Positions 3,256 through 53,424 of a stretch of DNA of 64,000 nucleotides are shown here, one piece after another; positions within the stretch are counted from its first letter, which is position 1; every line of letters begins with the position of its first letter. A program made the position numbers and the translations under genes. The notes beneath the pieces are model-generated. The model did not search any database, was not told the origin of the DNA, and saw nothing but the letters and a program-made list of their open reading frames with translations. Origin of the DNA: Tuwongella immobilis (GTDB taxonomy: Bacteria; Planctomycetota; Planctomycetia; Gemmatales; Gemmataceae); NCBI RefSeq assembly GCF_901538355.1, contig NZ_LR593887.1:4006920-4070919 (forward strand), written 5' to 3'.

Positions 3256-3339
3256 TGCCGGGGACAGGACTTGAACCTGCACGCTATTGCTAGCACCAGC
3301 CCCTCAAGCTGGCGTGTCTGCCAATTCCACCACCCCGGC
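3256..3339 (-). tRNA. tRNA-Leu(GAG)
   Basis: The minus strand folds as a class II tRNA. The 7-bp acceptor stem is GCCGGGG/CCCCGGC with discriminator A. The anticodon stem CCAGC/GCTGG carries loop TTGAGGG, giving anticodon GAG. There is a variable arm and a T-loop with TTCAAGT. CCA is not encoded. Confidence 0.93.
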
Positions 3340-41613: not shown

Positions 41614-42807
41614 TTAGCCGATCAGCTTTGCCAACTCGATCGCGGCATCGATTGGCGATTTGGCATAGATCTCGGTAGTTGCTGTCGTTGTGTGTCCAAG
41701 GGCCTGTCGTACGGCTTCGATGCCTGCAATCTTTCGTCCTTCAGTTGCAAACGTGTGTCGTAGTCGATTTGCACTCCACACTGGGATTCCGGCCTTTTTG
41801 CAAGCTCTTGCGATTGCCTGAGAGTAGTTCTGTCTTGAGTAGGGTTTCGATACTGGCTGACGCGTTGAATTGTATTCTTTGCTCTTGGAATACAAGTATT
41901 TCGTCTTCGCTTGTTCGCGTCGTTTGTTGCGGTGCTGCTTCAGCGATTCGGCGACTTGGAAAATGAATCCGCTTTCTGATCGAGACAACAATGGCCCTAA
42001 AATTGCTTGTGCTTTCGGACCGATCAACACAATTCGTTCGCTGCCTCGATGGCTTGTTTTGTGTTTGCTTGGTCTGTATTGCCAGATTTCTTGGGAGCGT
42101 TCGATTTCTTCGACCCTGAGATTGACTAATTCTCCAGGACGCATTCCGGTTAATCGTTGTACAAGAACCATCGAGCGAAGCGTGGGGGTAAGATGTGGCA
42201 GGATCGCTTCAATTTGTTCATCCTGCACTCCACAGATGCCCATCGTTTCCTTCGCGGACGATCGATTGGCTTTCAGGTTTTGCAGCACAGCAAGCCGGGC
42301 GGGTATTTCCGCATCGATCAGCCCTTCGGAAGCTGCCCATCGAAAAACGGTGCGAATCCTCCGAATGTTGGCGTTGATGGTCGTGCGGGCCAGCCGACGC
42401 TCGATCAGATCCGCTCGCAGGTTCCGCAGATCTTCGATGGTGAATTCCGACACTCCCCGATGCCCGTGTTTTTCGTGCAAGTCTCGAAGTCCGTATCGGA
42501 AATTCTCAAGTTCTCCAGTTGGGGTTTGATCCGCGTGTCGATAGTAGCTTTCCCCATGTTTGAAGAATGCCACAATGATTTCGTTGATCGTTCGGCCAGT
42601 TCCCCTTGCATTTGATAGAGGACGTCTTCCGAGGCTGATCCATTCGGCGATGAGGCTATCGGCCTTTTCAACGATCGAAAGCGGCGGACGGGCCATTTCA
42701 GGCGGCCAGTAGCCGAGGTAGTGGAGTTCGCCTGATAGGTTGATGTAGCCGAGTTGATTGTCTTTGTGACGTAGAATTGCAGGCAATGAATTTTTTACTC
42801 GTGGCAC
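41614..42807 (-). CDS. Tyrosine recombinase (site-specific integrase)
   Basis: I chose GTG 42807: TGGAG lies 8 nt upstream, and the protein then begins P-R-V-K-N-S-L, as planctomycete integrases often do; the ORF extends to 42870. The 397-aa protein has an N-terminal arm-binding part (G-E-L-H-Y-L-G-Y-W), a SAM-like core-binding domain, and a catalytic domain with R in T-G-M-R-P-G-E-L, R-L-R-H-T-F-A, L-G-H-T-T and Tyr in T-E-I-Y-A-K. All catalytic residues are present. Its 5' end is 98 nt from the right tRNA-Gly repeat, so it is probably the island's own integrase. Confidence 0.92.
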   Translation of the reverse strand: MPRVKNSLPAILRHKDNQLGYINLSGELHYLGYWPPEMARPPLSIVEKADSLIAEWISLGRRPLSNARGTGRTINEIIVAFFKHGESYYRHADQTPTGELENFRYGLRDLHEKHGHRGVSEFTIEDLRNLRADLIERRLARTTINANIRRIRTVFRWAASEGLIDAEIPARLAVLQNLKANRSSAKETMGICGVQDEQIEAILPHLTPTLRSMVLVQRLTGMRPGELVNLRVEEIERSQEIWQYRPSKHKTSHRGSERIVLIGPKAQAILGPLLSRSESGFIFQVAESLKQHRNKRREQAKTKYLYSKSKEYNSTRQPVSKPYSRQNYSQAIARACKKAGIPVWSANRLRHTFATEGRKIAGIEAVRQALGHTTTATTEIYAKSPIDAAIELAKLIG

Positions 42808-42904
42808 GCTCAGATCTCCATCTAAATCTGTACGGTACAGACTTAGCCAGGGGAACCGATGCGATTTCACGTCATATGAAATTCATCGCAAGTTGTTGCA
42901 AGCA

Positions 42905-43461: not shown

Positions 43462-46179
43462 TTATTTCACCCCCTCGACATAACTTTCTGCCAGTCCGAT
43501 TAGAGACATGTTCTCTGCAATCACATCATGGGGGATCAGGAGATACTTCCACTCTTTTCCGTTGTGCTGTTTCGCATATTTGGATGCGTTTTCGCACCAT
43601 TGAACGGCCGCATCCCGTTTTGCCAGCACAATTGAATCATTGAGTTCCGAAGCCCTCTTCGTTTCAATCATGAAGATAGTATCCGTGGTCTCGGCGACAA
43701 AATCTGGTTGGTATTCCTGCTGCTCGTGCCCCTGCTTGAAGAAGATCTGGAATTGCCCTTTCGCGGGGCGGAACCACCGCATCGCGTCTCGCTCCAAGAG
43801 AATCGCCAACTTCCGCTCGGGGTCCGACTGGAACTTGGTGAGTCGATAGAGGCTCCGATGGAAGCCATTGAACAGGTACTGAGTGATCTTCGATTTGTCG
43901 GCTGGAGGTTGTCGGTAGTCGAGGACCGAGTCATTTGCGCTCGCAGTGTACGCGCTGGTCCGGAGTTGGGTGAACCCCTTCCGTACCTCCACATCATAAC
44001 CAGTTGACTCTTCCCAAAAATGCTCCAACATTTGCGCGTGGATAAAGTCGGAGATTGGTTTCTGGTGGACTCGCAACACTTTTCGCACCTCGAACTCATC
44101 CTTCAGATAACTCTTCAGATGGTTCACCGTTTGGTTCGCGAGGTCGTATAGCAGCTCGGCGTGGTCGTCATAGGACACATCGTCGAAATCGACTAAACCA
44201 CCGACCACGTAGTCCTCCAGTCGTTGTTCTTCGATCCCACCTCGTCCAACGCTGATACTTTCCTGTTCGCCTGTTCGGAGCTTTTGGGCCACCAGTTCAT
44301 CGGAGGGCACTGGAAACCGCAAGGAGGTCAGGTTGAGTTGGAACGGTTTGAACCCGCACCGCACCTCATCCTTCGGGATCACAACGATCCGCGGAATATC
44401 GATCGTTCCCATCACGACGTGTTCCGTCGTCTTCGCCACTACTTCTGCAATTTGTTCAGACTCGGTGAACATTTCCAACTGCTGCGATCCGAGCCGGCGC
44501 TTGACTTCCGCCACGACCTTGGACTGAACCTCGCTATTCTGCAACGACGCCAACGTCGGCGCGACATCGGTCTGGCTCTCATAGGAGCGGATCACCTCAT
44601 AAGCGACCTGCGCCACCTTCTGTTCTTGTGGAGTAAAAATGGAACCGCTACGACGCGGAGGCACAGAGGCAGAACCCGAGTTGGTTGTCTCCGCATCTTG
44701 GAGTCTCTGCGGTTGATCTTCCAGCATTTCTTGGATTGTCGACTTGGAGATGACCGTCACCATCGTCTGGCCGAGTTGCGAGGGGTCGAGCACGAGTTGT
44801 TGCAGGCGAATCGGCGATTCAGGCCGCTTGGCCTCGTCGATAATCTCCTGGAACTTGTCATGAGCGATAATGTTCAGTCGGTCCACGGGGTTGACGCCAG
44901 TCCGTTTCCCATAGGGAAGTCGCAGGCCGCGCCCGATACTCTGTTCGATGAGGATCCGAGCATTCGCAGCTCGAAGCGGCACAATCGTGTACAAATTCGT
45001 CACGTCCCAGCCTTCTTTGAGCATGTTGACGTGAATTACGATCTCCGTCGGCGATGTCGTCGCTTCCACCGCCAGAAGATCCTGGATCATCTTGTCTTCT
45101 TCTGCTCCGGTCTTGCTCGAATCGACCTGGATCGCGCGCTCCTTGTAGCGGCCGTCGAAGAAGGTTTCGCTTCGGATCAGATCCAATAGTTGGCTCGCAT
45201 GCGTCGTATCCCGAGCAATCACCAGCACGAACGGCTTCACGATCTTTTGGCCTGTTTGCCGGGCGTAGGTTTCCAGCTCCACCTTGACCTGCTCGTGCAG
45301 CCGCACGCCATCTTCCAATTTCATCCGCTCCAGATCATCGTTCGACATACCCGCCGGGTTGAAATCCTTCCGGGTGACGACTGCCGGTTCTTTCACAAAC
45401 CCGTCGGCCATCGCTCGCGCCAGCGGGTAATCCACCACCACATTCTTGAATGGTATCGCCCCTTTCGGCGTCTCCACAAACGGAGTTGCCGTCAGCTCAA
45501 GTCCGAGAATTGGCTTTAACTCGTTGATTGCCCGAACGCCGGCGCTCGCTCGGTATCGGTGACTTTCGTCCATGAGCAGCACCAAGTCGGGCAACTTGCT
45601 CAGGTACTCGAAATAACTCTCGCCGATGTACTCACTCAGCCGTTTGATTCGGGGCGATTTGCCGCCACGCACTTCGCTGTTGATCTTCGAAATGTTGAAG
45701 ATGTTCACCTTGCAGTCGTCCGGCTGGTCGAACAGCGTGATCGCCTGCGATTCGTAGTTGTCGCCGGTGATGATCGTCGGCGGGTTGATGGCGAAGTCCT
45801 GAATCCCCTGGAACACGTACTTCGGGTGAGTGCGTTCTTTGAAGTCGGTGATGAGCTTGTTGTAAATCGTCAGGTTGGGGGCCAGGACGAAGAAGTTGCG
45901 GATGCCATGGGCGAGGTACAAATAGCTGATGAACGCCCCCATCAGACGCGTCTTGCCGACGCCGGTGGCCAACGCGAAACAGAGCGATGGGAACTCCCGC
46001 TCGAAGTCCGTCACTTGCGGGAACGCTTCCTTCAGCTTCTTCTCTGCGTCCTCCGCGTCTTGGCGGTTCAACTTCTTCAATGGAAGTATCTCGCACACGC
46101 GAGCCAAAACTTCGAGCGATTGCCGCTGCGGGCTCCGCAGACTGAGCCGCCCCGTGATGTTGTTGACGTGTCTGTTCAT
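43462..46179 (-). CDS. res: Type III-like restriction enzyme Res subunit (helicase-nuclease)
   Basis: 905 aa. Superfamily 2 helicase: Walker A as A-T-G-V-G-K-T-R, DEAD-like box as L-L-M-D-E-S-H-R-Y-R, motif III as L-T-A-T-P, and motif VI as Q-S-I-G-R-G-L-R-L-P. The C-terminal PD-(D/E)xK nuclease is Q-P-D-F-V then M-I-E-T-K-R. This suits ATP-dependent cleavage with the Mod protein encoded upstream. Residues near 37-48 (L-N-R-Q-D-A-E-D-A-E-K-K) are a translated copy of the dispersed CGCCAAGACGC-type repeat that also lies at 46.6-47.0 kb. Confidence 0.88.
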   Translation of the reverse strand: MNRHVNNITGRLSLRSPQRQSLEVLARVCEILPLKKLNRQDAEDAEKKLKEAFPQVTDFEREFPSLCFALATGVGKTRLMGAFISYLYLAHGIRNFFVLAPNLTIYNKLITDFKERTHPKYVFQGIQDFAINPPTIITGDNYESQAITLFDQPDDCKVNIFNISKINSEVRGGKSPRIKRLSEYIGESYFEYLSKLPDLVLLMDESHRYRASAGVRAINELKPILGLELTATPFVETPKGAIPFKNVVVDYPLARAMADGFVKEPAVVTRKDFNPAGMSNDDLERMKLEDGVRLHEQVKVELETYARQTGQKIVKPFVLVIARDTTHASQLLDLIRSETFFDGRYKERAIQVDSSKTGAEEDKMIQDLLAVEATTSPTEIVIHVNMLKEGWDVTNLYTIVPLRAANARILIEQSIGRGLRLPYGKRTGVNPVDRLNIIAHDKFQEIIDEAKRPESPIRLQQLVLDPSQLGQTMVTVISKSTIQEMLEDQPQRLQDAETTNSGSASVPPRRSGSIFTPQEQKVAQVAYEVIRSYESQTDVAPTLASLQNSEVQSKVVAEVKRRLGSQQLEMFTESEQIAEVVAKTTEHVVMGTIDIPRIVVIPKDEVRCGFKPFQLNLTSLRFPVPSDELVAQKLRTGEQESISVGRGGIEEQRLEDYVVGGLVDFDDVSYDDHAELLYDLANQTVNHLKSYLKDEFEVRKVLRVHQKPISDFIHAQMLEHFWEESTGYDVEVRKGFTQLRTSAYTASANDSVLDYRQPPADKSKITQYLFNGFHRSLYRLTKFQSDPERKLAILLERDAMRWFRPAKGQFQIFFKQGHEQQEYQPDFVAETTDTIFMIETKRASELNDSIVLAKRDAAVQWCENASKYAKQHNGKEWKYLLIPHDVIAENMSLIGLAESYVEGVK

Positions 46180-46218
46180 GATGTTGAACCGCCAAGGCGA
46201 AATGTCGCCAAAAAGACA

Positions 46219-46614
46219 TTATTCATGGGAATACACCACCCGCTTGATACCGTCCTTGAGAACGGGAACATGGAAGTTGATGAGCAGGCCAAGGATGTGG
46301 CCCGTTGCCTTCAGGTAGGAGATGACTTGTGCCTTGTGAATCTCGGCCAAGGCATCTACAGTCTTTAACTCCACGATCAGTTCACCACCCACCAGGAAAT
46401 CGAGCCGCCCTTCGCCGATGGCGTGCCCTTTGTAAGTCAACGCAATCGAGTGCTGACGTGAGCACGAAATCCCACGCAAGCCGAACTCGATCGCCAAGGC
46501 TTCCTCGTAAACCTTCTCCAGATACCCCGGCCCGAGTACCCGATGCACTTCAATCGCCGCACCAATCACGGAACTCGCCAATCGGTCCACTGCTTCCGAT
46601 GGCTCTTGCTTCAT
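46219..46614 (-). CDS. GxxExxY family protein
   Basis: 131 aa from ATG 46614 with AAGGA 7 nt upstream. The signature G-P-G-Y-L-E-K-V-Y-E-E-A-L lies near residue 35. A PD-(D/E)xK-like core is visible (R-L-D-F-L-V then I-V-E-L-K). The function is unknown; such genes are frequent in planctomycetes and often sit beside the NRQDAE-type repeat, as here. It separates mod and res. Confidence 0.88.
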   Translation of the reverse strand: MKQEPSEAVDRLASSVIGAAIEVHRVLGPGYLEKVYEEALAIEFGLRGISCSRQHSIALTYKGHAIGEGRLDFLVGGELIVELKTVDALAEIHKAQVISYLKATGHILGLLINFHVPVLKDGIKRVVYSHE

Positions 46615-47029
46615 GAGGAAATCCTTCTTGAACCGCCAAGTCGCCAAGTCACCAAAAATTAATAATATAATTTGTTCTTCTTGGCGTCTCTGCGTCTTGG
46701 CGGTTAATCTTCTTCAAATAAACTCACCCGCTTCTTCTTCGCCGACCGTATGAGGAAATCCTTCTTGAACTGCCAAGACGCCATGTCGCCAAGAATTAAA
46801 AATAGAATTTGTTCTTCTTGGCGTCTCTGCGTCTTGGCGGTTCTTCTTCTTCTTCAAATAAACTCACCCGCTTCTTCTTCGCCGCCCGTATGAGGAAATC
46901 CTTCTTGAACCGCCAAGTCGCAAAGTCGCCAAGAATCAAAAATAGAATTTGTTCTTCTTGGCGTCTCTGCGTCTTGGCGGTTAATCTTCTTCTTCAAATA
47001 AACTCACCCGCTTCTTCTTCGCCGCCCGT
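46613..47029. repeat. Three tandem ~140-bp units at the mod 3' end
   Basis: Units at 46613-46749, 46750-46889 and 46890-47029. Each contains, on the minus strand, the last codons of mod (K-K-K-R-V-S-L-F-E-E), the element ACCGCCAAGACGCAGAGACG and its near-inverse, and the GAAGGATTTCCTCAT ribosome-site region of the GxxExxY gene. The junction between the two genes was thus triplicated. Confidence 0.85.
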
Positions 47030-48600
47030 GGCAGGTTCTCCACCTTCAGCGAGTAGTCATCGTGGCCCCATTCGCACTTGTGCAGCACCGCCTTGGGGAT
47101 CTTCTTCACCGTCAGATTCGGCCAGCGGTCGGCTTTGCCCCGGAAGGCGCAGCACAGCACCAGCAGCGTTCGCCCATCGCCGACCTCGTCGTTCAACTGC
47201 TGCAACTGTTCGACGCTCAGCGTTTGCGTGGTGCAGTAGAGGTAATCTGTCTCGGTGCTGCGTCCCTGCATCCAGAAAATGCTATCGCTCGGTTCGTAGC
47301 GGAAGCCTTCGAGCTTGCACAGCGCCTCGGCCAGCATCGCCGGGTTGTACTCCTTGCTAATCACCCACTGCCCCCACCGGTCTTGCATCAGCAGACTGGG
47401 GGCGAGCTTGAAGTAGCGGAAGCCACCGCCCCCCTTCCAGCCGGTCGCCTCGGTGATGCCGCCGGGGTCTTGCCCGTCGATCACCTTTTTCAGCCGCGGG
47501 ATGATGTGCGTGTGGCAGTGCTCGCCGAGTTCGACCATGATCCAGCGCCGGCCCATCTTGTGCGCGACCGCCCCGGTCGTACCGGAACCGGCGAATGAGT
47601 CGAGAACGAGGTCGCCGGGGTTGGTGGCAAGTTGAAGAACCCGTTGTATCAATCGCTCAGGTTTTGGCGTGACGAATACATCTCCTTCAAATGCAAGCGC
47701 GTTAATCTCGTTCTTTGCTTCCGCGTTGTGACCTACCTCATCGTGAAACCAGATGGTCGATGGGGTGACTCCTTGTTTTACCTCTGAGAGAAACGTCTTT
47801 CTGTTAGGCGTTCCTGAATTGTCTCGTCCCCACCATATTCGTTGGTCTCGATCCAACTCCGTGAACGAATCTTTGGACATAACCCAGTATCTGCCAGGTG
47901 GCGGCTTGAATTCCTGCCCCGTAGGAGACACAACAGTGTAACTTCCTTGGCTGTAATAGTTCCTTGCATGTAGTGGAGTTGCCTTCCAAGGGCCGCGAGA
48001 ATCGTTATCAGGATTCCGATAAGCATCGTTCTGCTTTTCTTGCCTGGGAAGCTCGTTCAGTGACCAGATCTCTTTGCTTTTGGCAATTACGACGAGGTAA
48101 TCGTGCATGGCTGAGAAATGGCGGGCGGTATTCTTGCTCGTGTAGACCTTTTGCCAAATTACTGTTGCGACGAAGTTTTCGCGTCCAAAAACCTCGTCTA
48201 GCATAATCTTCATGTAGTAAAGTTCATTGTCATCAATGCTGATCCAAATGCTCCCATCCTCCCGCAACAACCTCCGCAGTAGCTCCAGCCGGTCGCGCAT
48301 TAGCGACAGCCACAGGGAATGCTCGATGCCGTCGTCGTAGTGCTCGAAGGCGGAGCCGGTGTTGTACGGCGGGTCGATATAGATGCACTTCACCTGGCCG
48401 GTGAACTCGGCTTCGAGGGCCTTGAGGGCGAGCAGGTTGTCGCCGAAGATGAGGCGATTGTCGAACAGATCGTTGGCCGACACTTGCTCCGCGGCGACGT
48501 GACTCCGGGCCGGGTCTTCGAGAAGAATCCTCGGCTCCAGCTTCGGCCGATGTTCCTTGCCGATCCACGTCAGTTCGAGCTTCTGTTTCCGCGGGGTCAT
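46981..48600 (-). CDS. mod: Type III-like DNA methyltransferase (Mod)
   Basis: A 539-aa beta-class amino methyltransferase. Motif IV D-P-P-Y-N-T-G lies near residue 75 and the AdoMet motif I D-S-F-A-G-S-G-T-T-G near 350, in that order, as expected for adenine-N6 type III Mod proteins. The target-recognition region lies between them. Its ATG overlaps the darG stop (ATGA). The last codons are duplicated in the downstream repeats. Confidence 0.9.
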   Translation of the reverse strand: MTPRKQKLELTWIGKEHRPKLEPRILLEDPARSHVAAEQVSANDLFDNRLIFGDNLLALKALEAEFTGQVKCIYIDPPYNTGSAFEHYDDGIEHSLWLSLMRDRLELLRRLLREDGSIWISIDDNELYYMKIMLDEVFGRENFVATVIWQKVYTSKNTARHFSAMHDYLVVIAKSKEIWSLNELPRQEKQNDAYRNPDNDSRGPWKATPLHARNYYSQGSYTVVSPTGQEFKPPPGRYWVMSKDSFTELDRDQRIWWGRDNSGTPNRKTFLSEVKQGVTPSTIWFHDEVGHNAEAKNEINALAFEGDVFVTPKPERLIQRVLQLATNPGDLVLDSFAGSGTTGAVAHKMGRRWIMVELGEHCHTHIIPRLKKVIDGQDPGGITEATGWKGGGGFRYFKLAPSLLMQDRWGQWVISKEYNPAMLAEALCKLEGFRYEPSDSIFWMQGRSTETDYLYCTTQTLSVEQLQQLNDEVGDGRTLLVLCCAFRGKADRWPNLTVKKIPKAVLHKCEWGHDDYSLKVENLPRAAKKKRVSLFEEED

Positions 48601-49655
48601 GGGGCGGTTCCCTCCGTGAGTTCAACCCATCCTTGCAATTTCAACCGCTCTTCGGCGATGGCAATTTGGCGGGCCGTGAATTGTTTTTTGCGATCATTCC
48701 AGGCATTGATTTGTCGGATCACACGTTCGTGTGTCGTTGCTCCTTCACGGCTCATCACCCAATGGACAGTCGCCAATAATTCCAGTCCGAAGGGCGACTC
48801 GAAGCCTTCGACCAGGCGAGTCACTCGCTCAAAACGGCCTCGGCTGGCTTCATGTTGATCGAGAAATATCTTGGCGTCTTGCTCGGCTCCGGGCACAAGG
48901 GCAACGGGTTTGTCCGGAGCATCGCCACCATCGGCATAACCAGAGATCAAGTGCCCTTCGATCGCATTCAGGACGTGACGCAGATTTTCCGCATACGGTC
49001 CATAGTGTGCCTTGACGTACTTCAGGCGCAACGGCTCTCCCGCTTCTTGCATGAAATACATCAGCTTGTGAATTTCCAGCAGGGTGACGAAGGGATCAAG
49101 CAAACCGCCCAGATAGCGATGAATCAGTTCGACTAGGGCCGCTCGTCCGGGAGTCATTTTGGGGACATCACGAACGTGGGCCATTGTCGAATTGTCGGGT
49201 GCGCCGTTGGGTTCGTAGACAAGAACCTCCACGCCATCAAGCACCGACATGGCTTCTTCAATGAGCGGGCGTACGTCGTTCCAGTTTAATCCACCGAGTC
49301 CAGCGCCTAAGGGGGGGATCGCGATGGAACGAATCCCGTGATCACGGATGACCGTCACTAAATCGACCAACCCCGCCTCGATGTCCTCGATACGGCTCTT
49401 CCCACGCCAGTGGCGTTTGGTAGGAAAGTTGATGATGAATCGTGGTGGGGTAAGTAGACCGGTTTCAAATACGAACATCCGCCCGGGTTGCACGCGTTCA
49501 CGCATACAGGCGTCTTCGTAGGCAGTGAAATTTTCGGGATATGCTTTCTTGAATTGCAAGGCAATTCCACGCCCCATCACACCGACACAATTAACGGTAT
49601 TGACAAGCGCATCCGCGTCGCTCTTGAGGATGTCTCCGGAGGTAAATTTAATCAC
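48597..49655 (-). CDS. darG: DarG: macro-domain DNA ADP-ribosyl glycohydrolase antitoxin
   Basis: 352 aa. The macro domain (1-155) starts F-T-S-G-D-I-L-K-S-D-A-D-A-L-V-N-T-V-N and holds G-R-G-I-A-L-Q-F-K and P-P-L-G-A-G-L-G-G-L-N-W. The C-terminal domain (165-352) is the DarT-binding region seen in full-length DarG. It removes ADP-ribose from thymidine in DNA and neutralises DarT. The start is 19 nt after darT. Confidence 0.93.
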   Translation of the reverse strand: MIKFTSGDILKSDADALVNTVNCVGVMGRGIALQFKKAYPENFTAYEDACMRERVQPGRMFVFETGLLTPPRFIINFPTKRHWRGKSRIEDIEAGLVDLVTVIRDHGIRSIAIPPLGAGLGGLNWNDVRPLIEEAMSVLDGVEVLVYEPNGAPDNSTMAHVRDVPKMTPGRAALVELIHRYLGGLLDPFVTLLEIHKLMYFMQEAGEPLRLKYVKAHYGPYAENLRHVLNAIEGHLISGYADGGDAPDKPVALVPGAEQDAKIFLDQHEASRGRFERVTRLVEGFESPFGLELLATVHWVMSREGATTHERVIRQINAWNDRKKQFTARQIAIAEERLKLQGWVELTEGTAP

Positions 49656-49674
49656 GGGAGTTCCCTACTCCATT

Positions 49675-50310
49675 TCAGTAATACCAATCCGGCCGGTACT
49701 CGACCGTTGGCCGGTGCCTACAGTGTCGAAGAATATCGTTTGCTTGTTGGGACACACGAGGAGATTGAACACCGATCCGTTCAATCAGCTCCCAAGGGCA
49801 GCAACGCTCCAGCAGAAATTCTGCCTGTTTGCCTTCCTTATGTGTCCGCCAATCCCGTGCCTGCACGGCGGTCCAGTCGATCTCGCTGAGACGCGCGAGA
49901 TCTTTACGATCCTCAAAGTAGTATGCACCAGCATTGGAGAGCGTGAACGCCCAACGTGTGGTTTGCGCATTGGCCCAAGCAACGGTCGCCCGCAAATCGG
50001 CTTCGAGGTGCAGAATCGGCCCTTGGCCACCGCGATAGGCCAGTTCCGGATGATTGGCCTGATGAATTAAGTAGAGCATGATCGAGCGCGGGCAAAAGTA
50101 AAACGGTACGCAATCCCCGACGCACAGGTCGGGGTAGCTACTCAACGGAAGCGACAGTCTCCGTTGTTTGATGCTGCTCATACCGATGGTCGTGCCGGGT
50201 GGTGTTCGCTGGATGATTTCCGCATCGGACCACAAATAACCGTCATCGATGATGGAAACAAGCCGATCAACGTGAACGATATGGTAAATTTTTAGGGGGT
50301 CGGGAATCAT
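49675..50310 (-). CDS. darT: DarT: DNA thymidine ADP-ribosyltransferase toxin
   Basis: 211 aa from ATG 50310, which overlaps the helicase stop codon (ATGA). DUF4433/DarT features: Y-H-I-V-H-V-D-R-L near the start, P-L-S-S-Y-P-D-L and V-P-F-Y-F-C-P-R-S-I-M-L in the NAD-binding part, and the catalytic Glu in G-K-Q-A-E-F-L-L. It modifies single-stranded DNA with ADP-ribose and blocks phage or host replication. Confidence 0.93.
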   Translation of the reverse strand: MIPDPLKIYHIVHVDRLVSIIDDGYLWSDAEIIQRTPPGTTIGMSSIKQRRLSLPLSSYPDLCVGDCVPFYFCPRSIMLYLIHQANHPELAYRGGQGPILHLEADLRATVAWANAQTTRWAFTLSNAGAYYFEDRKDLARLSEIDWTAVQARDWRTHKEGKQAEFLLERCCPWELIERIGVQSPRVSQQANDILRHCRHRPTVEYRPDWYY

Positions 50311-53171
50311 GTCACCCTCCAACGGAGCGACAAAATCTGGATGACGGTCACCTTCTGTTCGAGTTTGGACTCGACACTCTTGATGAGCGTGTCGCGGCGT
50401 TGTTCAATCTCATCTTGGGCGGTGAACAGTTTGCGCCGTTTGTCATTCCGCTCGCTCTCCAATTTTTTGACTTGGCGTTGGCCAGCCAGTTTTTCTTCAA
50501 GCGTTAAGGCGAGCGAAGCAGCACGTCGTGCTTCTTTGAGTTGCCGATCAAGGTCTTTGATATCACGCTCGAGACCGACTTTCAGATCCTCGGCCCAACT
50601 ATCGAGCTTACTCGTCTCTTCTTCGAACAAGCGACCATTCCGCTCAGCAATCCGCTTTTGCTCGTCGGTTTGTTGTCGTTCGATCTCCGCGACAAGCCGA
50701 GGATCGGGCTGGAACGCATTGATCGTCCGCACGTCCAATGCACTCAGCGAAAAGAACTTCGATGCTACGTCGACGGGGAGCATTCGTCCCTCTGAGGTCA
50801 ACGCTGCAAACAAAAGATGGTCTTCGGCTTGATCCATCGATTCAACGCTTAGCTTACTGACGAGCAGCTCTCCCGTGGAGCCGCGGTAGGGTTCGAGAGC
50901 GCCGACCTTCGGGAGTGTGCCTCCCCAATCGAAGACAATTTCTGCGGGCGGCAGGCTTCGCTCCGTGGCCTTTTGCACCAGCCGCAGGGCGAGCGGGTGG
51001 CCGAGCCGGTACAGATGCCCGTCACCGCTGCGACGCGGCAGTTCGTAACGGCCGGTCGGAATCTCCAGGTCGGTGAACAGGTTGGTCGTCAGGTCGAACG
51101 AATCCTCCGACTCCGCGAACGCGGCGTGGCCGGCCAGTTCATGCTGCGTCAACCGCATCAACATCTTCTCATAGCGATTTTGAAAGCCTTCACTCGTCGA
51201 TTTCGAGACTTTCAGTTTTGCGTGGACTTCCTCGTCGAAGTGCTCCAGTAATTGACGACGAGTCGTCGTGATCGCCTCATTGATCTGAACGGTCAATTCG
51301 TTCTGAAGGCGGGCGAACGATTCACGGATCTCGCCGGGCGTGCGGCAGTCCTGGTAGATGCGGGCGATGCGCTTCTCAAAATCGACGCCCGATTCAATCG
51401 CCCCAAGCACCTCGTCGGACGCGCCAAAGACGCCCTCGAACAGCTTGAACTTCTGATCGAGCAACTCGAAGACACGCCGATCGGCCTCGTTGTTTCGATT
51501 CAGGAAATTTACCACCACCACATCATGTTTTTGGCCATAGCGATGGCAGCGACCAATTCGCTGTTCAATCCGTTGCGGATTCCATGGCAAATCATAATTC
51601 ACAACGAGTGAACAAAACTGGAGGTTGATCCCTTCCGCACCAGCTTCGGTGGCAATCATGATCGAGCCTTCATCGCGGAAGTAATCCACGAGCGCAGATC
51701 GCATGTCGGCCGTTCGAGAACCAGTCACTCGATCGGTATCTGCATAGCGACGAAACCATTCGGAGTAAATCACCTTCGAGCGTTCATCGTTGTTGGAACC
51801 ATTGAACAGAACAATCTCTTCGGAGTATGGACTGTCATCGAGCAGTCGAAGGAGATATTCTTGAGTCTTTCGGGATTCCGTGAAGATGATCGCTTTCTTG
51901 GCCGCGCCGAGCCGGTTGGCCTCGCTGAATGCCTTCTCCAGAGCCGTCAACAAAGCCTTTCCTTTGGCGTTATGCGAAATCGACAATGCGAGGTTTCGAA
52001 ACGCCTCCAGGTCGAGGATTTCTTGCTCCAATGCGATCCGATCGTTTTCCGATACCGGTGATTCGTCGGCTGAATCGTCTCCCCACTCCTCCGCCGTCGC
52101 ATCAAGTGCTTCATATTCTGCATCCAGGTCGTCTTCGATCGAGCCTGACTCAGGTTTTTGACCAACCTTTTGTTTGAGCCGAGTGATGAGAGTATCCAAT
52201 GCCCCAGCAATTGCAAACGTGCTCGATGCCAGCAACTTCCGCAATACAAGCGTCATCAAACTTCGTTGACTCGAGGGCAGAGCCTGCAGATTCTCCCGTT
52301 GAAGATAGGCCGATACTTCAGCGTAGAGTCGATCTTCATCTTCAGCCGGTGTAAACTCCTCAACGATTGCGTGCCGTTTCGTATAAGGCACATATTCCAA
52401 CACTTGACGGCGTAGGGTGCGATGACAAATCGGCGAAAGCCGTGCCTTGAGTGCTTGGAACACGTCTTCTTCACGAAGATTCGCAAATTGTTCACGAAAA
52501 CTATTTAAATCACCAAAAGCATGTTCATCAATAAAGCTCACGAGTCCAAAAAGCTCGAGGAGTGAGTTTTGGAGCGGAGTTGCCGTGAGCAGCAGCTTGG
52601 GACTGCGAATCAACGAAGTTTTGAGAACATTGGCGATCACATTCGAGGATTTGTATACATTTCGAAGTCGATGCGCTTCGTCAATGACAACCAGATCCCA
52701 CAAAATGCTCGAAATCTGAGATGCCTTTGAGCGAGCAAATTGATAAGAGCAAATGACCACGGTTTCCGGAGATGTCTGAAAAGGTTGGCTCACACCTTTC
52801 CGGATCGCTTCGTTAAACGATTTTGCCTCGAGGATCTTGCAAGGCAAAAAGAACTTTTCGGTCAGTTCTTGGTGCCATTGTTTTCGGAGATTTGCTGGTG
52901 CGATCACAAGTAGTCTTCGCTTTCGCTCGGCCCACTTCTGAGAAAGCACCAACCCAGCTTCAATCGTCTTGCCGAGCCCAACTTCATCCGCGAGCATTGC
53001 CCCACGAGAGAGCGGCGAACGGAACGCAAATAGCGCTGCCTCGACTTGGTGAGGGTTGAGGTCGACTTGTGCATCGACCAGCGCGCCTGCCAGTTTCTCC
53101 ATACTATCAGAAGCACATCGTTTCGTGAGCTCATGAGCGAAGTAGACGCTATGATAGTCCGTGAGTATCAT
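50307..53171 (-). CDS. SNF2-family helicase, first gene of the defence operon
   Basis: 954 aa from ATG 53171 (M-I-L-T-D-Y-H-S-V-Y-F); the ORF extends 31 residues further without support. Motifs: L-A-D-E-V-G-L-G-K-T-I-E-A-G (Walker A), V-I-D-E-A-H-R-L-R-N (DEAH), L-T-A-T-P-L-Q-N, and Q-R-I-G-R-C-H-R-Y-G-Q (motif VI). The C-terminal 150 residues form a long charged coiled coil. It resembles RapA-like helicases found in several anti-phage systems. Overlap with darT implies one transcript. Confidence 0.9.
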   Translation of the reverse strand: MILTDYHSVYFAHELTKRCASDSMEKLAGALVDAQVDLNPHQVEAALFAFRSPLSRGAMLADEVGLGKTIEAGLVLSQKWAERKRRLLVIAPANLRKQWHQELTEKFFLPCKILEAKSFNEAIRKGVSQPFQTSPETVVICSYQFARSKASQISSILWDLVVIDEAHRLRNVYKSSNVIANVLKTSLIRSPKLLLTATPLQNSLLELFGLVSFIDEHAFGDLNSFREQFANLREEDVFQALKARLSPICHRTLRRQVLEYVPYTKRHAIVEEFTPAEDEDRLYAEVSAYLQRENLQALPSSQRSLMTLVLRKLLASSTFAIAGALDTLITRLKQKVGQKPESGSIEDDLDAEYEALDATAEEWGDDSADESPVSENDRIALEQEILDLEAFRNLALSISHNAKGKALLTALEKAFSEANRLGAAKKAIIFTESRKTQEYLLRLLDDSPYSEEIVLFNGSNNDERSKVIYSEWFRRYADTDRVTGSRTADMRSALVDYFRDEGSIMIATEAGAEGINLQFCSLVVNYDLPWNPQRIEQRIGRCHRYGQKHDVVVVNFLNRNNEADRRVFELLDQKFKLFEGVFGASDEVLGAIESGVDFEKRIARIYQDCRTPGEIRESFARLQNELTVQINEAITTTRRQLLEHFDEEVHAKLKVSKSTSEGFQNRYEKMLMRLTQHELAGHAAFAESEDSFDLTTNLFTDLEIPTGRYELPRRSGDGHLYRLGHPLALRLVQKATERSLPPAEIVFDWGGTLPKVGALEPYRGSTGELLVSKLSVESMDQAEDHLLFAALTSEGRMLPVDVASKFFSLSALDVRTINAFQPDPRLVAEIERQQTDEQKRIAERNGRLFEEETSKLDSWAEDLKVGLERDIKDLDRQLKEARRAASLALTLEEKLAGQRQVKKLESERNDKRRKLFTAQDEIEQRRDTLIKSVESKLEQKVTVIQILSLRWRVT

Positions 53172-53424
53172 CGATCTTCGGTCCGTGGGTTGAGAATACC
53201 TTGTTTTCTTCGATCTACTTCCGGCTCGCGAGTCGTTTTCTGGGAATGGCCAACTCTCGACCATTCATCGCCCCCAATTCGGGTGACTCAGATGTCAGCA
53301 GAACTGATTCTCTCAGCAAATTTGCGAAAAACAATGCAGCCACTAAAATTTTGGTATCCGCCGCCCGCACGCGAAATTGGTCTGCTCCCCACATCAAGCG
53401 ATCATGAATAACAAGCGAGGAAAC
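53172..53424. other. Promoter region of the defence operon
   Basis: No gene is seen between the helicase start and the IS3 remnant. The minus-strand promoter for the operon should be here. I could not pick convincing -10/-35 boxes. Confidence 0.35.

What the first reader, a model, noticed from the sequence alone, without database searches (positions are those of the whole stretch)
46040..46090. The same dispersed repeat is translated inside the Res protein
Near residue 40 the Res frame contains L-N-R-Q-D-A-E-D-A-E-K-K, the translation of the intergenic element repeated at 46.6-47.0 kb. It falls just before the helicase core between otherwise conserved parts. The element apparently inserted in frame and was kept.
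Basis: partly seen in the sequence, partly recalled or inferred. Interest (0 to 1): 0.5.

Follow-up and report, generated by a model that had tools for sequence, protein, structure and literature searches.

The report
Repeat arm built into restriction enzyme
A 36-base piece of a hairpin-forming repeat, whose relatives often flank a small nuclease-like gene, has become 12 amino acids of a bacterial DNA-restriction enzyme, and the same spot of that enzyme holds an unrelated repeat in other bacteria of the phylum.

Summary
Res residues 37-48 (LNRQDAEDAEKK; window 46036-46071, minus strand) are one arm of the hairpin repeated three times at 46571-46987. The interpretation needs corrections. (1) The repeat is local, not dispersed, in this genome: all six BLAST matches of E 0.01 or better in 6.69 Mb lie in this locus. 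(2) Only the 5' arm is present. It overwrote part of a linker helix, including a Leu found in all 17 aligned homologues, with little change in length. (3) The arm belongs to a repeat family whose inverted arms flank GxxExxY genes: 29 of 33 tested, against 1 of 115 control pairs. One such gene sits here between mod and res. The nearest relative, L036, has neither. (4) The Res linker is a repeat trap: 10 of 29 other homologues, all of one other planctomycete family, carry an unrelated palindromic repeat there; their Mod genes carry it too. Most likely the arm was copied from the neighbouring array. In-frame palindromes in proteins are known (Rickettsia RPE). In the papers searched, no description of the GxxExxY arms was found. 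Whether Res still works is not shown.

The parts
46036..46071 (-). Repeat 5' arm read in frame as Res residues 37-48 (LNRQDAEDAEKK)
   Evidence: Alignment to the array arms, the repeat finder family D3, genome BLAST E 2.2e-6, no hairpin of its own
43462..46179 (-). res: type III restriction subunit, 905 aa
   Evidence: PF04851 E 8.5e-22; PADLOC REase_III E 2.2e-201
46184..46214 (-). Single 3' arm between the GxxExxY stop and the Res start
   Evidence: the repeat finder family D4; pairs with the upstream arm at score 15 (L006); genome BLAST E 0.0039
46219..46608 (-). GxxExxY gene (PDDEXK_3), 129 aa from its ATG; the listed 142-aa ORF starts at a TTG inside the repeat
   Evidence: TIGR04256 E 1e-40, PF13366 E 1.1e-39; the only match in the genome
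46571..46987 (-). Array of three units of about 140 bp, each the mod 3' end plus a hairpin plus the GxxExxY leader; hairpins about 46630-46705, 46768-46843, 46907-46982
   Evidence: the repeat finder D1, D2, I1-I3, I5, I6; the hairpins fold at -34 to -44.5 kcal/mol, z -7.7 to -11.6
46981..48600 (-). mod: type III DNA methyltransferase, 539 aa; the hairpin abuts its stop codon
   Evidence: PF01555 E 6.9e-50; PADLOC MTase_III E 1.5e-227

Best explanation
Residues 37-48 of Res are the translated 5' arm of a GxxExxY-associated inverted-arm repeat. Such an element (hairpin, GxxExxY gene, single 3' arm) entered the mod-res junction of a restriction operon that in its nearest relative has none, and the hairpin unit was then triplicated in tandem. 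One 5' arm, most likely copied from the array about 0.6 kb away, replaced about 30 nt of Res with about 36 nt, in frame. It was probably kept because the place is a length-variable linker between the N-terminal helix and the helicase core, and the arm has no stop in this frame and encodes a helix-forming peptide. Shown: identity of the segment, its restriction to this locus, the junction without element in the relative, arms around GxxExxY genes, another repeat in the same linker elsewhere. Inferred: copying from the array by template switching or gene conversion, that Res is still active, and that GxxExxY moves the arms.
For: The segment matches the array arms on the same strand. A further 9-nt match (TTGAAGAAG) lies just upstream, three bases from the arm, in the mod 3' end that the array units carry, which suggests the array as donor. 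Genome matches of E 0.01 or better are all in the locus. In L036 the mod stop overlaps the res ATG, with no exact arm 10-mer and no GxxExxY match. None of the 18 non-own loci with a Mod match has a GxxExxY match. Inverted arms flank 29 of 33 GxxExxY genes against 1 of 115 displaced window pairs; the GxxExxY N-termini of L042 and L053 read the arm in the same frame as Res (MNRQSAK, LNRQDAK). AlphaFold puts the peptide at the start of helix Res 39-52, block pLDDT 82-85. Ten other Res proteins carry a different repeat in the same linker.
Against: The arm put Glu at Res 46, where all 17 other sequences of the alignment have Leu, so 'tolerated' is an assumption and Res may be impaired; in the f47 proteins the repeat stands before this helix and the Leu is kept. 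The 9-nt flank match could be coincidence, since Leu-Lys-Lys is common at this place. 11 of 2000 synonymous recodings match as well. Insertion of a whole element followed by deletion is not excluded. The Res model is weak overall (pLDDT 72.9, pTM 0.42). No intermediate state was found. Synonymous sites between window and L036 are saturated (dN 0.178, dS 2.42), so selection on Res after the capture is not shown.
Confidence: 0.65

Rival explanations
1. A complete hairpin element inserted directly into Res, as Rickettsia palindromic elements do in their hosts' genes, and later lost its 3' arm and some native codons.
For: In-frame palindromic elements in proteins are known (PMC2229807, passages). 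In family f47 whole palindromic units, +22 to +62 aa, stand in this linker.
Against: Only one arm is present and linker length is nearly unchanged; a 9-nt match to the mod-derived part of the array lies just upstream.
Confidence: 0.25
2. Chance or convergence: a charged linker helix drifted into resemblance with the repeat.
For: The linker varies and is predicted helical here; L036 has NR at nearly the same place.
Against: 86% identity, E 2.2e-6 in the whole genome; the arm breaks a Leu kept in 17 of 17 others; the peptide is absent from 29 other linkers.
Confidence: 0.03
3. The reverse direction: the arm sequence arose in Res and the intergenic repeats are copies of it.
For: In this genome the repeat occurs only at this locus.
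Against: The arm pattern is multicopy in other planctomycetes (52 hits in G009, 33 in G141), neither of which has a Res match at E 1e-50, and L036 Res lacks it.
Confidence: 0.02

Closest known systems
Rickettsia palindromic elements (RPE), passages of PMC2229807
   Same: Palindromic, hairpin-forming repeat whose sequence is read in frame inside conserved proteins.
   Different: RPE are 105-146 bp and were reported in 19 reading frames; here one arm of a repeat of about 76 nt, confined to one locus of its genome, next to a GxxExxY gene.
REP/RAYT and MITE systems (PMC3733652, abstract and passages)
   Same: Short palindromes with a gene (RAYT) flanked by such repeats or by other inverted repeats; REPs inside genes are also reported there.
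   Different: RAYTs are tyrosine transposases; here the flanked gene is a 129-aa PD-(D/E)XK protein with no demonstrated transposase activity.
GxxExxY protein family (TIGR04256, PF13366)
   Same: The gene next to the repeat is a clear member; 185 of 392 planctomycete genomes have a match.
   Different: In the papers searched the name occurs in two, as a neighbouring-gene label and a gene-table entry; no link with inverted arms was seen in those passages.
Type III restriction-modification (EcoP15I Res, 4zcf)
   Same: Mod/Res pair, ResIII helicase core; weak match to the EcoP15I Res chain (E 4.1e-05).
   Different: Stands next to DarT/DarG and a DrmD-like helicase; linkers of such operons hold repeat-derived peptides in several genomes.

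Membership tests
GxxExxY (TIGR04256) | Score over the curated cut-off | tested here: met
   138.7 bits against a cut-off of 35
GxxExxY (TIGR04256) | PD-(D/E)XK nuclease residues and fold | tested here: met
   D70, E80, K82, Q94, Y98 invariant in 31 sequences; one PDB match of E 0.001 or better, alkaline exonuclease 3syy, E 3.2e-04, TM 0.47 but rmsd 16.1. Activity not tested
Type III restriction subunit | ResIII helicase domain with a type III Mod next to it | tested here: met
Rickettsia palindromic element | Palindromic repeat read in frame in a conserved protein | tested here: inconclusive
   Repeat-derived and in frame, but only one arm of the palindrome is in the protein
Rickettsia palindromic element | Dispersed in many copies in the host genome | tested here: not met
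   Matches of E 0.01 or better all in this locus
MITE (non-autonomous transposon) | Inverted repeats in a gene-less multicopy form | tested here: met
   In other genomes: 42 of 67 arm copies in 40 fetched loci have a partner arm within 150 nt, control 0 of 64; tandem copies in L151 are counted several times
MITE (non-autonomous transposon) | Target-site duplication and a cognate transposase | not tested
   No insertion boundary was resolved to the base; GxxExxY as the mobilising enzyme is inference

The most novel reading that the evidence does not exclude
GxxExxY proteins are the nucleases of an unrecognised, widespread family of operon-invading elements bounded by inverted arms built of tandem 7-9-base units. 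Their gene-less hairpins are that family's MITEs, and restriction-modification genes are preferred places where such palindromes become protein.
Probability: 0.3. Interest if true: 0.8.

Novelty: new variant of a known kind. Interest (0 to 1): 0.55.

Why it matters
In-frame palindromic repeats in proteins are best known to me from Rickettsia (recalled, and PMC2229807 passages). Here two unrelated repeat families sit in the same linker of the same restriction enzyme in different lineages, a natural experiment on where proteins accept new peptides. The finding also ties a very common unexplained gene (GxxExxY, matched in 185 of 392 planctomycete genomes) to a repeat architecture that suggests a mobile or repeat-processing nuclease, which is directly testable.

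Tried and rejected
Rfam: 10 matches up to E 1 in 45900-47100, all far below gathering score, mostly miRNA families; read as chance hairpin matches. Short-loop hairpins next to GxxExxY genes: no clear excess, 1 of 33 upstream and 1 of 33 downstream with stem score 12 or more (both L090), against 2 of 331 control windows; the arms turned out to lie on either side of the gene. Outside planctomycetes the arm test is mixed: of the 6 plasmid loci tested (8 records matched), L138, L139 and L142 scored 18 or more, L140, L141 and L143 below 14. The 33 genes are not a random sample: 30 loci of the best family scores (26 of 30 positive) plus the window, L042 and L053, which I already knew to have the repeat; control windows are probably mostly coding while the flanks are not. 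Genome G009, with the most repeat hits (52), has no GxxExxY match, which weighs against GxxExxY being needed today. In G161 and G188 the reversed control pattern also gave 3 and 2 hits against 5 and 8, so these two are less sure. In one search the reversed control gave 3 hits in this genome; one search finds the reversed pattern three times in the window, on the same three repeats, which are nearly symmetric. One search was also too strict to see the Res copy, so the claim of restriction to this locus rests (18-mer, up to 2 mismatches) had 8 hits, 5 of them copies in the array and Res, the others 2-mismatch hits, one inside res and two elsewhere, with 2 control hits. A tRNA next to the operon was suspected and not found; the only one in the window is at 3256-3339. 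Searches of the paper library for two sequence strings and two family names gave nothing.

Full report
The finding. Res is window 43462-46179 (-), 905 aa, a type III restriction subunit. Residues 37-48, LNRQDAEDAEKK, are encoded by 46036-46071. On the coding strand this DNA is the 5' arm of the hairpin repeated at 46571-46987. The array has three units of about 140 bp; a unit holds the 3' end of mod, a hairpin of about 76 nt and the leader of the GxxExxY gene. The three hairpins fold with z-scores of -7.7 to -11.6; the Res copy does not (z -0.99), because only one arm is there.

More than chance. BLAST of the array (46620-46990) against the whole genome finds the Res copy at 86% identity, E 2.2e-6. 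An arm 18-mer, written to fit the Res copy at one two-way base, has 7 hits in the window at up to 3 mismatches, 0.16 expected. Of 2000 synonymous recodings of the segment 11 match the array as well as the real one.

Not dispersed here. All six BLAST matches of E 0.01 or better lie in this locus; two more at E 0.095 and 0.62 do not. In other planctomycetes the repeat is dispersed: a 25-mer at up to 3 mismatches has hits in 29 of 392 genomes, 52 in G009 and 33 in G141; the reversed control had hits in G013 (2), G161 (3) and G188 (2).

The neighbouring gene. Between mod and res lies the only GxxExxY match of the genome. In L036 (Planctomycetota MAG BP6.bin110, Res 75% identical) mod and res overlap, with no exact arm 10-mer and no GxxExxY match. 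None of the 18 non-own loci with a Mod match has a GxxExxY match, though most flanks are about 1.5 kb. I compared 200 nt upstream of the GxxExxY domain with the reverse complement of 200 nt downstream of the stop: 29 of 33 genes score 14 or more (median 20), against 1 of 115 displaced window pairs (median 8); misses are L075, L088, L091, L094; without the three genes known beforehand to have the repeat it is 26 of 30. Arms differ in sequence between genomes but mostly share a design of tandem units such as CGCCAAGA, CACAAAGA, CACGGAGA; L077 and L095 look different (my reading). GxxExxY N-termini often read like a translated arm; those of L042 and L053, MNRQSAK and LNRQDAK, are in the same frame as in Res. 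Genomes with the 25-mer more often have GxxExxY: 24 of 29, against 161 of 363 (my tally; Fisher p 6e-5); G009, G029, G073, G232 and G280 have the repeat and no match. In 40 fetched repeat loci from 11 genomes, 42 of 67 arm copies have a partner arm within 150 nt, control 0 of 64; 22 of 40 loci hold such a hairpin and 3 of 40 have GxxExxY within 300 nt; the others show neither within these distances. With another arm type (AACCACAAAG...), 6 of 9 genomes had hits; of 30 hits fetched, 7 pair with an arm across a GxxExxY gene, 8 with a near arm (score 13.5 or more) and 15 with neither, some hits being the two arms of one element (my count).

Replacement in a linker helix. I read the linker in 25 homologues besides the window (the 24 of 29 non-own loci that reach it, and L036) and in 4 of 27 plasmid records. 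Of the 25, 15 have no repeat; their linkers, by one motif definition, are 42-48 aa in 14 and 58 in L033. The window has 44. So about 12 arm codons stand where about 10 native ones were (my reading). Fully conserved columns lie on both sides. Inside, one column is Leu in all 17 other aligned sequences and Glu46, from the arm, in the window. The AlphaFold model (18 sequences, mean pLDDT 72.9, pTM 0.42) gives a helix at Res 39-52, block pLDDT 82-85.

A parallel case. Ten of the 25, all in one unnamed family, f47, carry a different palindromic repeat in the same linker (HTPNPLSRGE..SPLLGGD..GVG), in nine right after a KK; L028 is broken upstream. Linkers are 64-104 aa in the 8 measured; L020 and L028 did not fit the motif. 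Five of the ten (L017-L021) are open over nearly the whole length; L025 and L028 have an in-frame stop. L014-L016 of that family lack the repeat in Res. In the five aligned the repeat stands before the helix, which keeps its Leu. The repeat core occurs in 16 of 16 f47 genomes searched, control 0. In the seven f47 operons fetched the core (up to 1 mismatch) is also in frame in Mod, at up to three places; L101 has it in Mod though not in Res; L103 has it in a helicase ORF and L097 in an ORF without Pfam match whose sequence there is similar. In G122 and G217, 5 of 7 exact core copies in the operon lie within ORFs of at least 150 aa, against 2 of 25 outside it, while 51% of random positions in the outside loci do (Fisher p 0.0019). 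The two outside are in an Eco57I-type restriction methylase (L189) and before a possible start of a ResIII helicase (L203). This is two genomes, picked because they have the repeat in Res, and a comparison made after seeing the data. Insert-bearing Res genes look conserved: dN 0.108, dS 1.34 for L017/L018; dN 0.040, dS 0.29 for L018 against L015 (without).

Mechanism. A 9-nt match, TTGAAGAAG, three bases upstream of the arm, is shared by Res and the mod 3' end in the array. That points to copying from a nearby array unit by template switching or gene conversion rather than fresh insertion; it is suggestive only. GxxExxY is predicted with confidence (pLDDT 94.7). Its best fold matches are lambda-type exonucleases, then SSO0001 (4ic1, recalled as Cas4) and MGME1, with only one at E 0.001 or better; D70, E80, K82, Q94 and Y98 are invariant in 31 sequences. 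That it acts on the arms is inference.

Literature. PMC2229807 (passages) describes RPE in frame in 19 Rickettsia reading frames. PMC3733652 (abstract, passages) describes REPs, some inside genes, and RAYT genes flanked by REPs or inverted repeats. 'GxxExxY' occurs in 2 papers of the 5.39 million held, as a gene label in both (passages); 'PDDEXK_3' and 'TIGR04256' in none. That the arms are undescribed rests on these searches, in a library that lacks most subscription journals.

Verdict. A real case of a repeat arm recruited into a protein; a new variant of a known kind, with a promising lead on GxxExxY. On checking I lowered the main confidence from 0.7 to 0.65 because of the lost Leu, and moved direct insertion from 0.22 to 0.25.

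Noticed in passing
window 48597-50322 (-): A DarT-DarG toxin-antitoxin pair by PADLOC lies between mod and a DrmD-like SNF2 helicase at 50307-53264.
   Followed up: no
window 41614-42870 (-): An ORF that reads like a tyrosine recombinase (from motifs, recalled, no family search) lies just beyond res, suggesting a mobile defence island.
   Followed up: no
L143 592-1020: A GxxExxY gene sits between fabD and fabG on a Sphingomonas plasmid, as if it had invaded a lipid-synthesis operon; the arm test was negative there.
   Followed up: partly
G009: 52 hits of the repeat pattern and no GxxExxY match in a 94% complete genome.
   Followed up: partly
L099 1975-4031, L100 5650-7626, L102 4700-6625: Mod genes of family f47 hold three separate in-frame clusters of a palindromic repeat; in L099 Mod is split over two ORFs.
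   Followed up: partly
L099 3992-4591: A 200-aa ORF between mod and res ends in a run of the same translated palindromic repeat.
   Followed up: no
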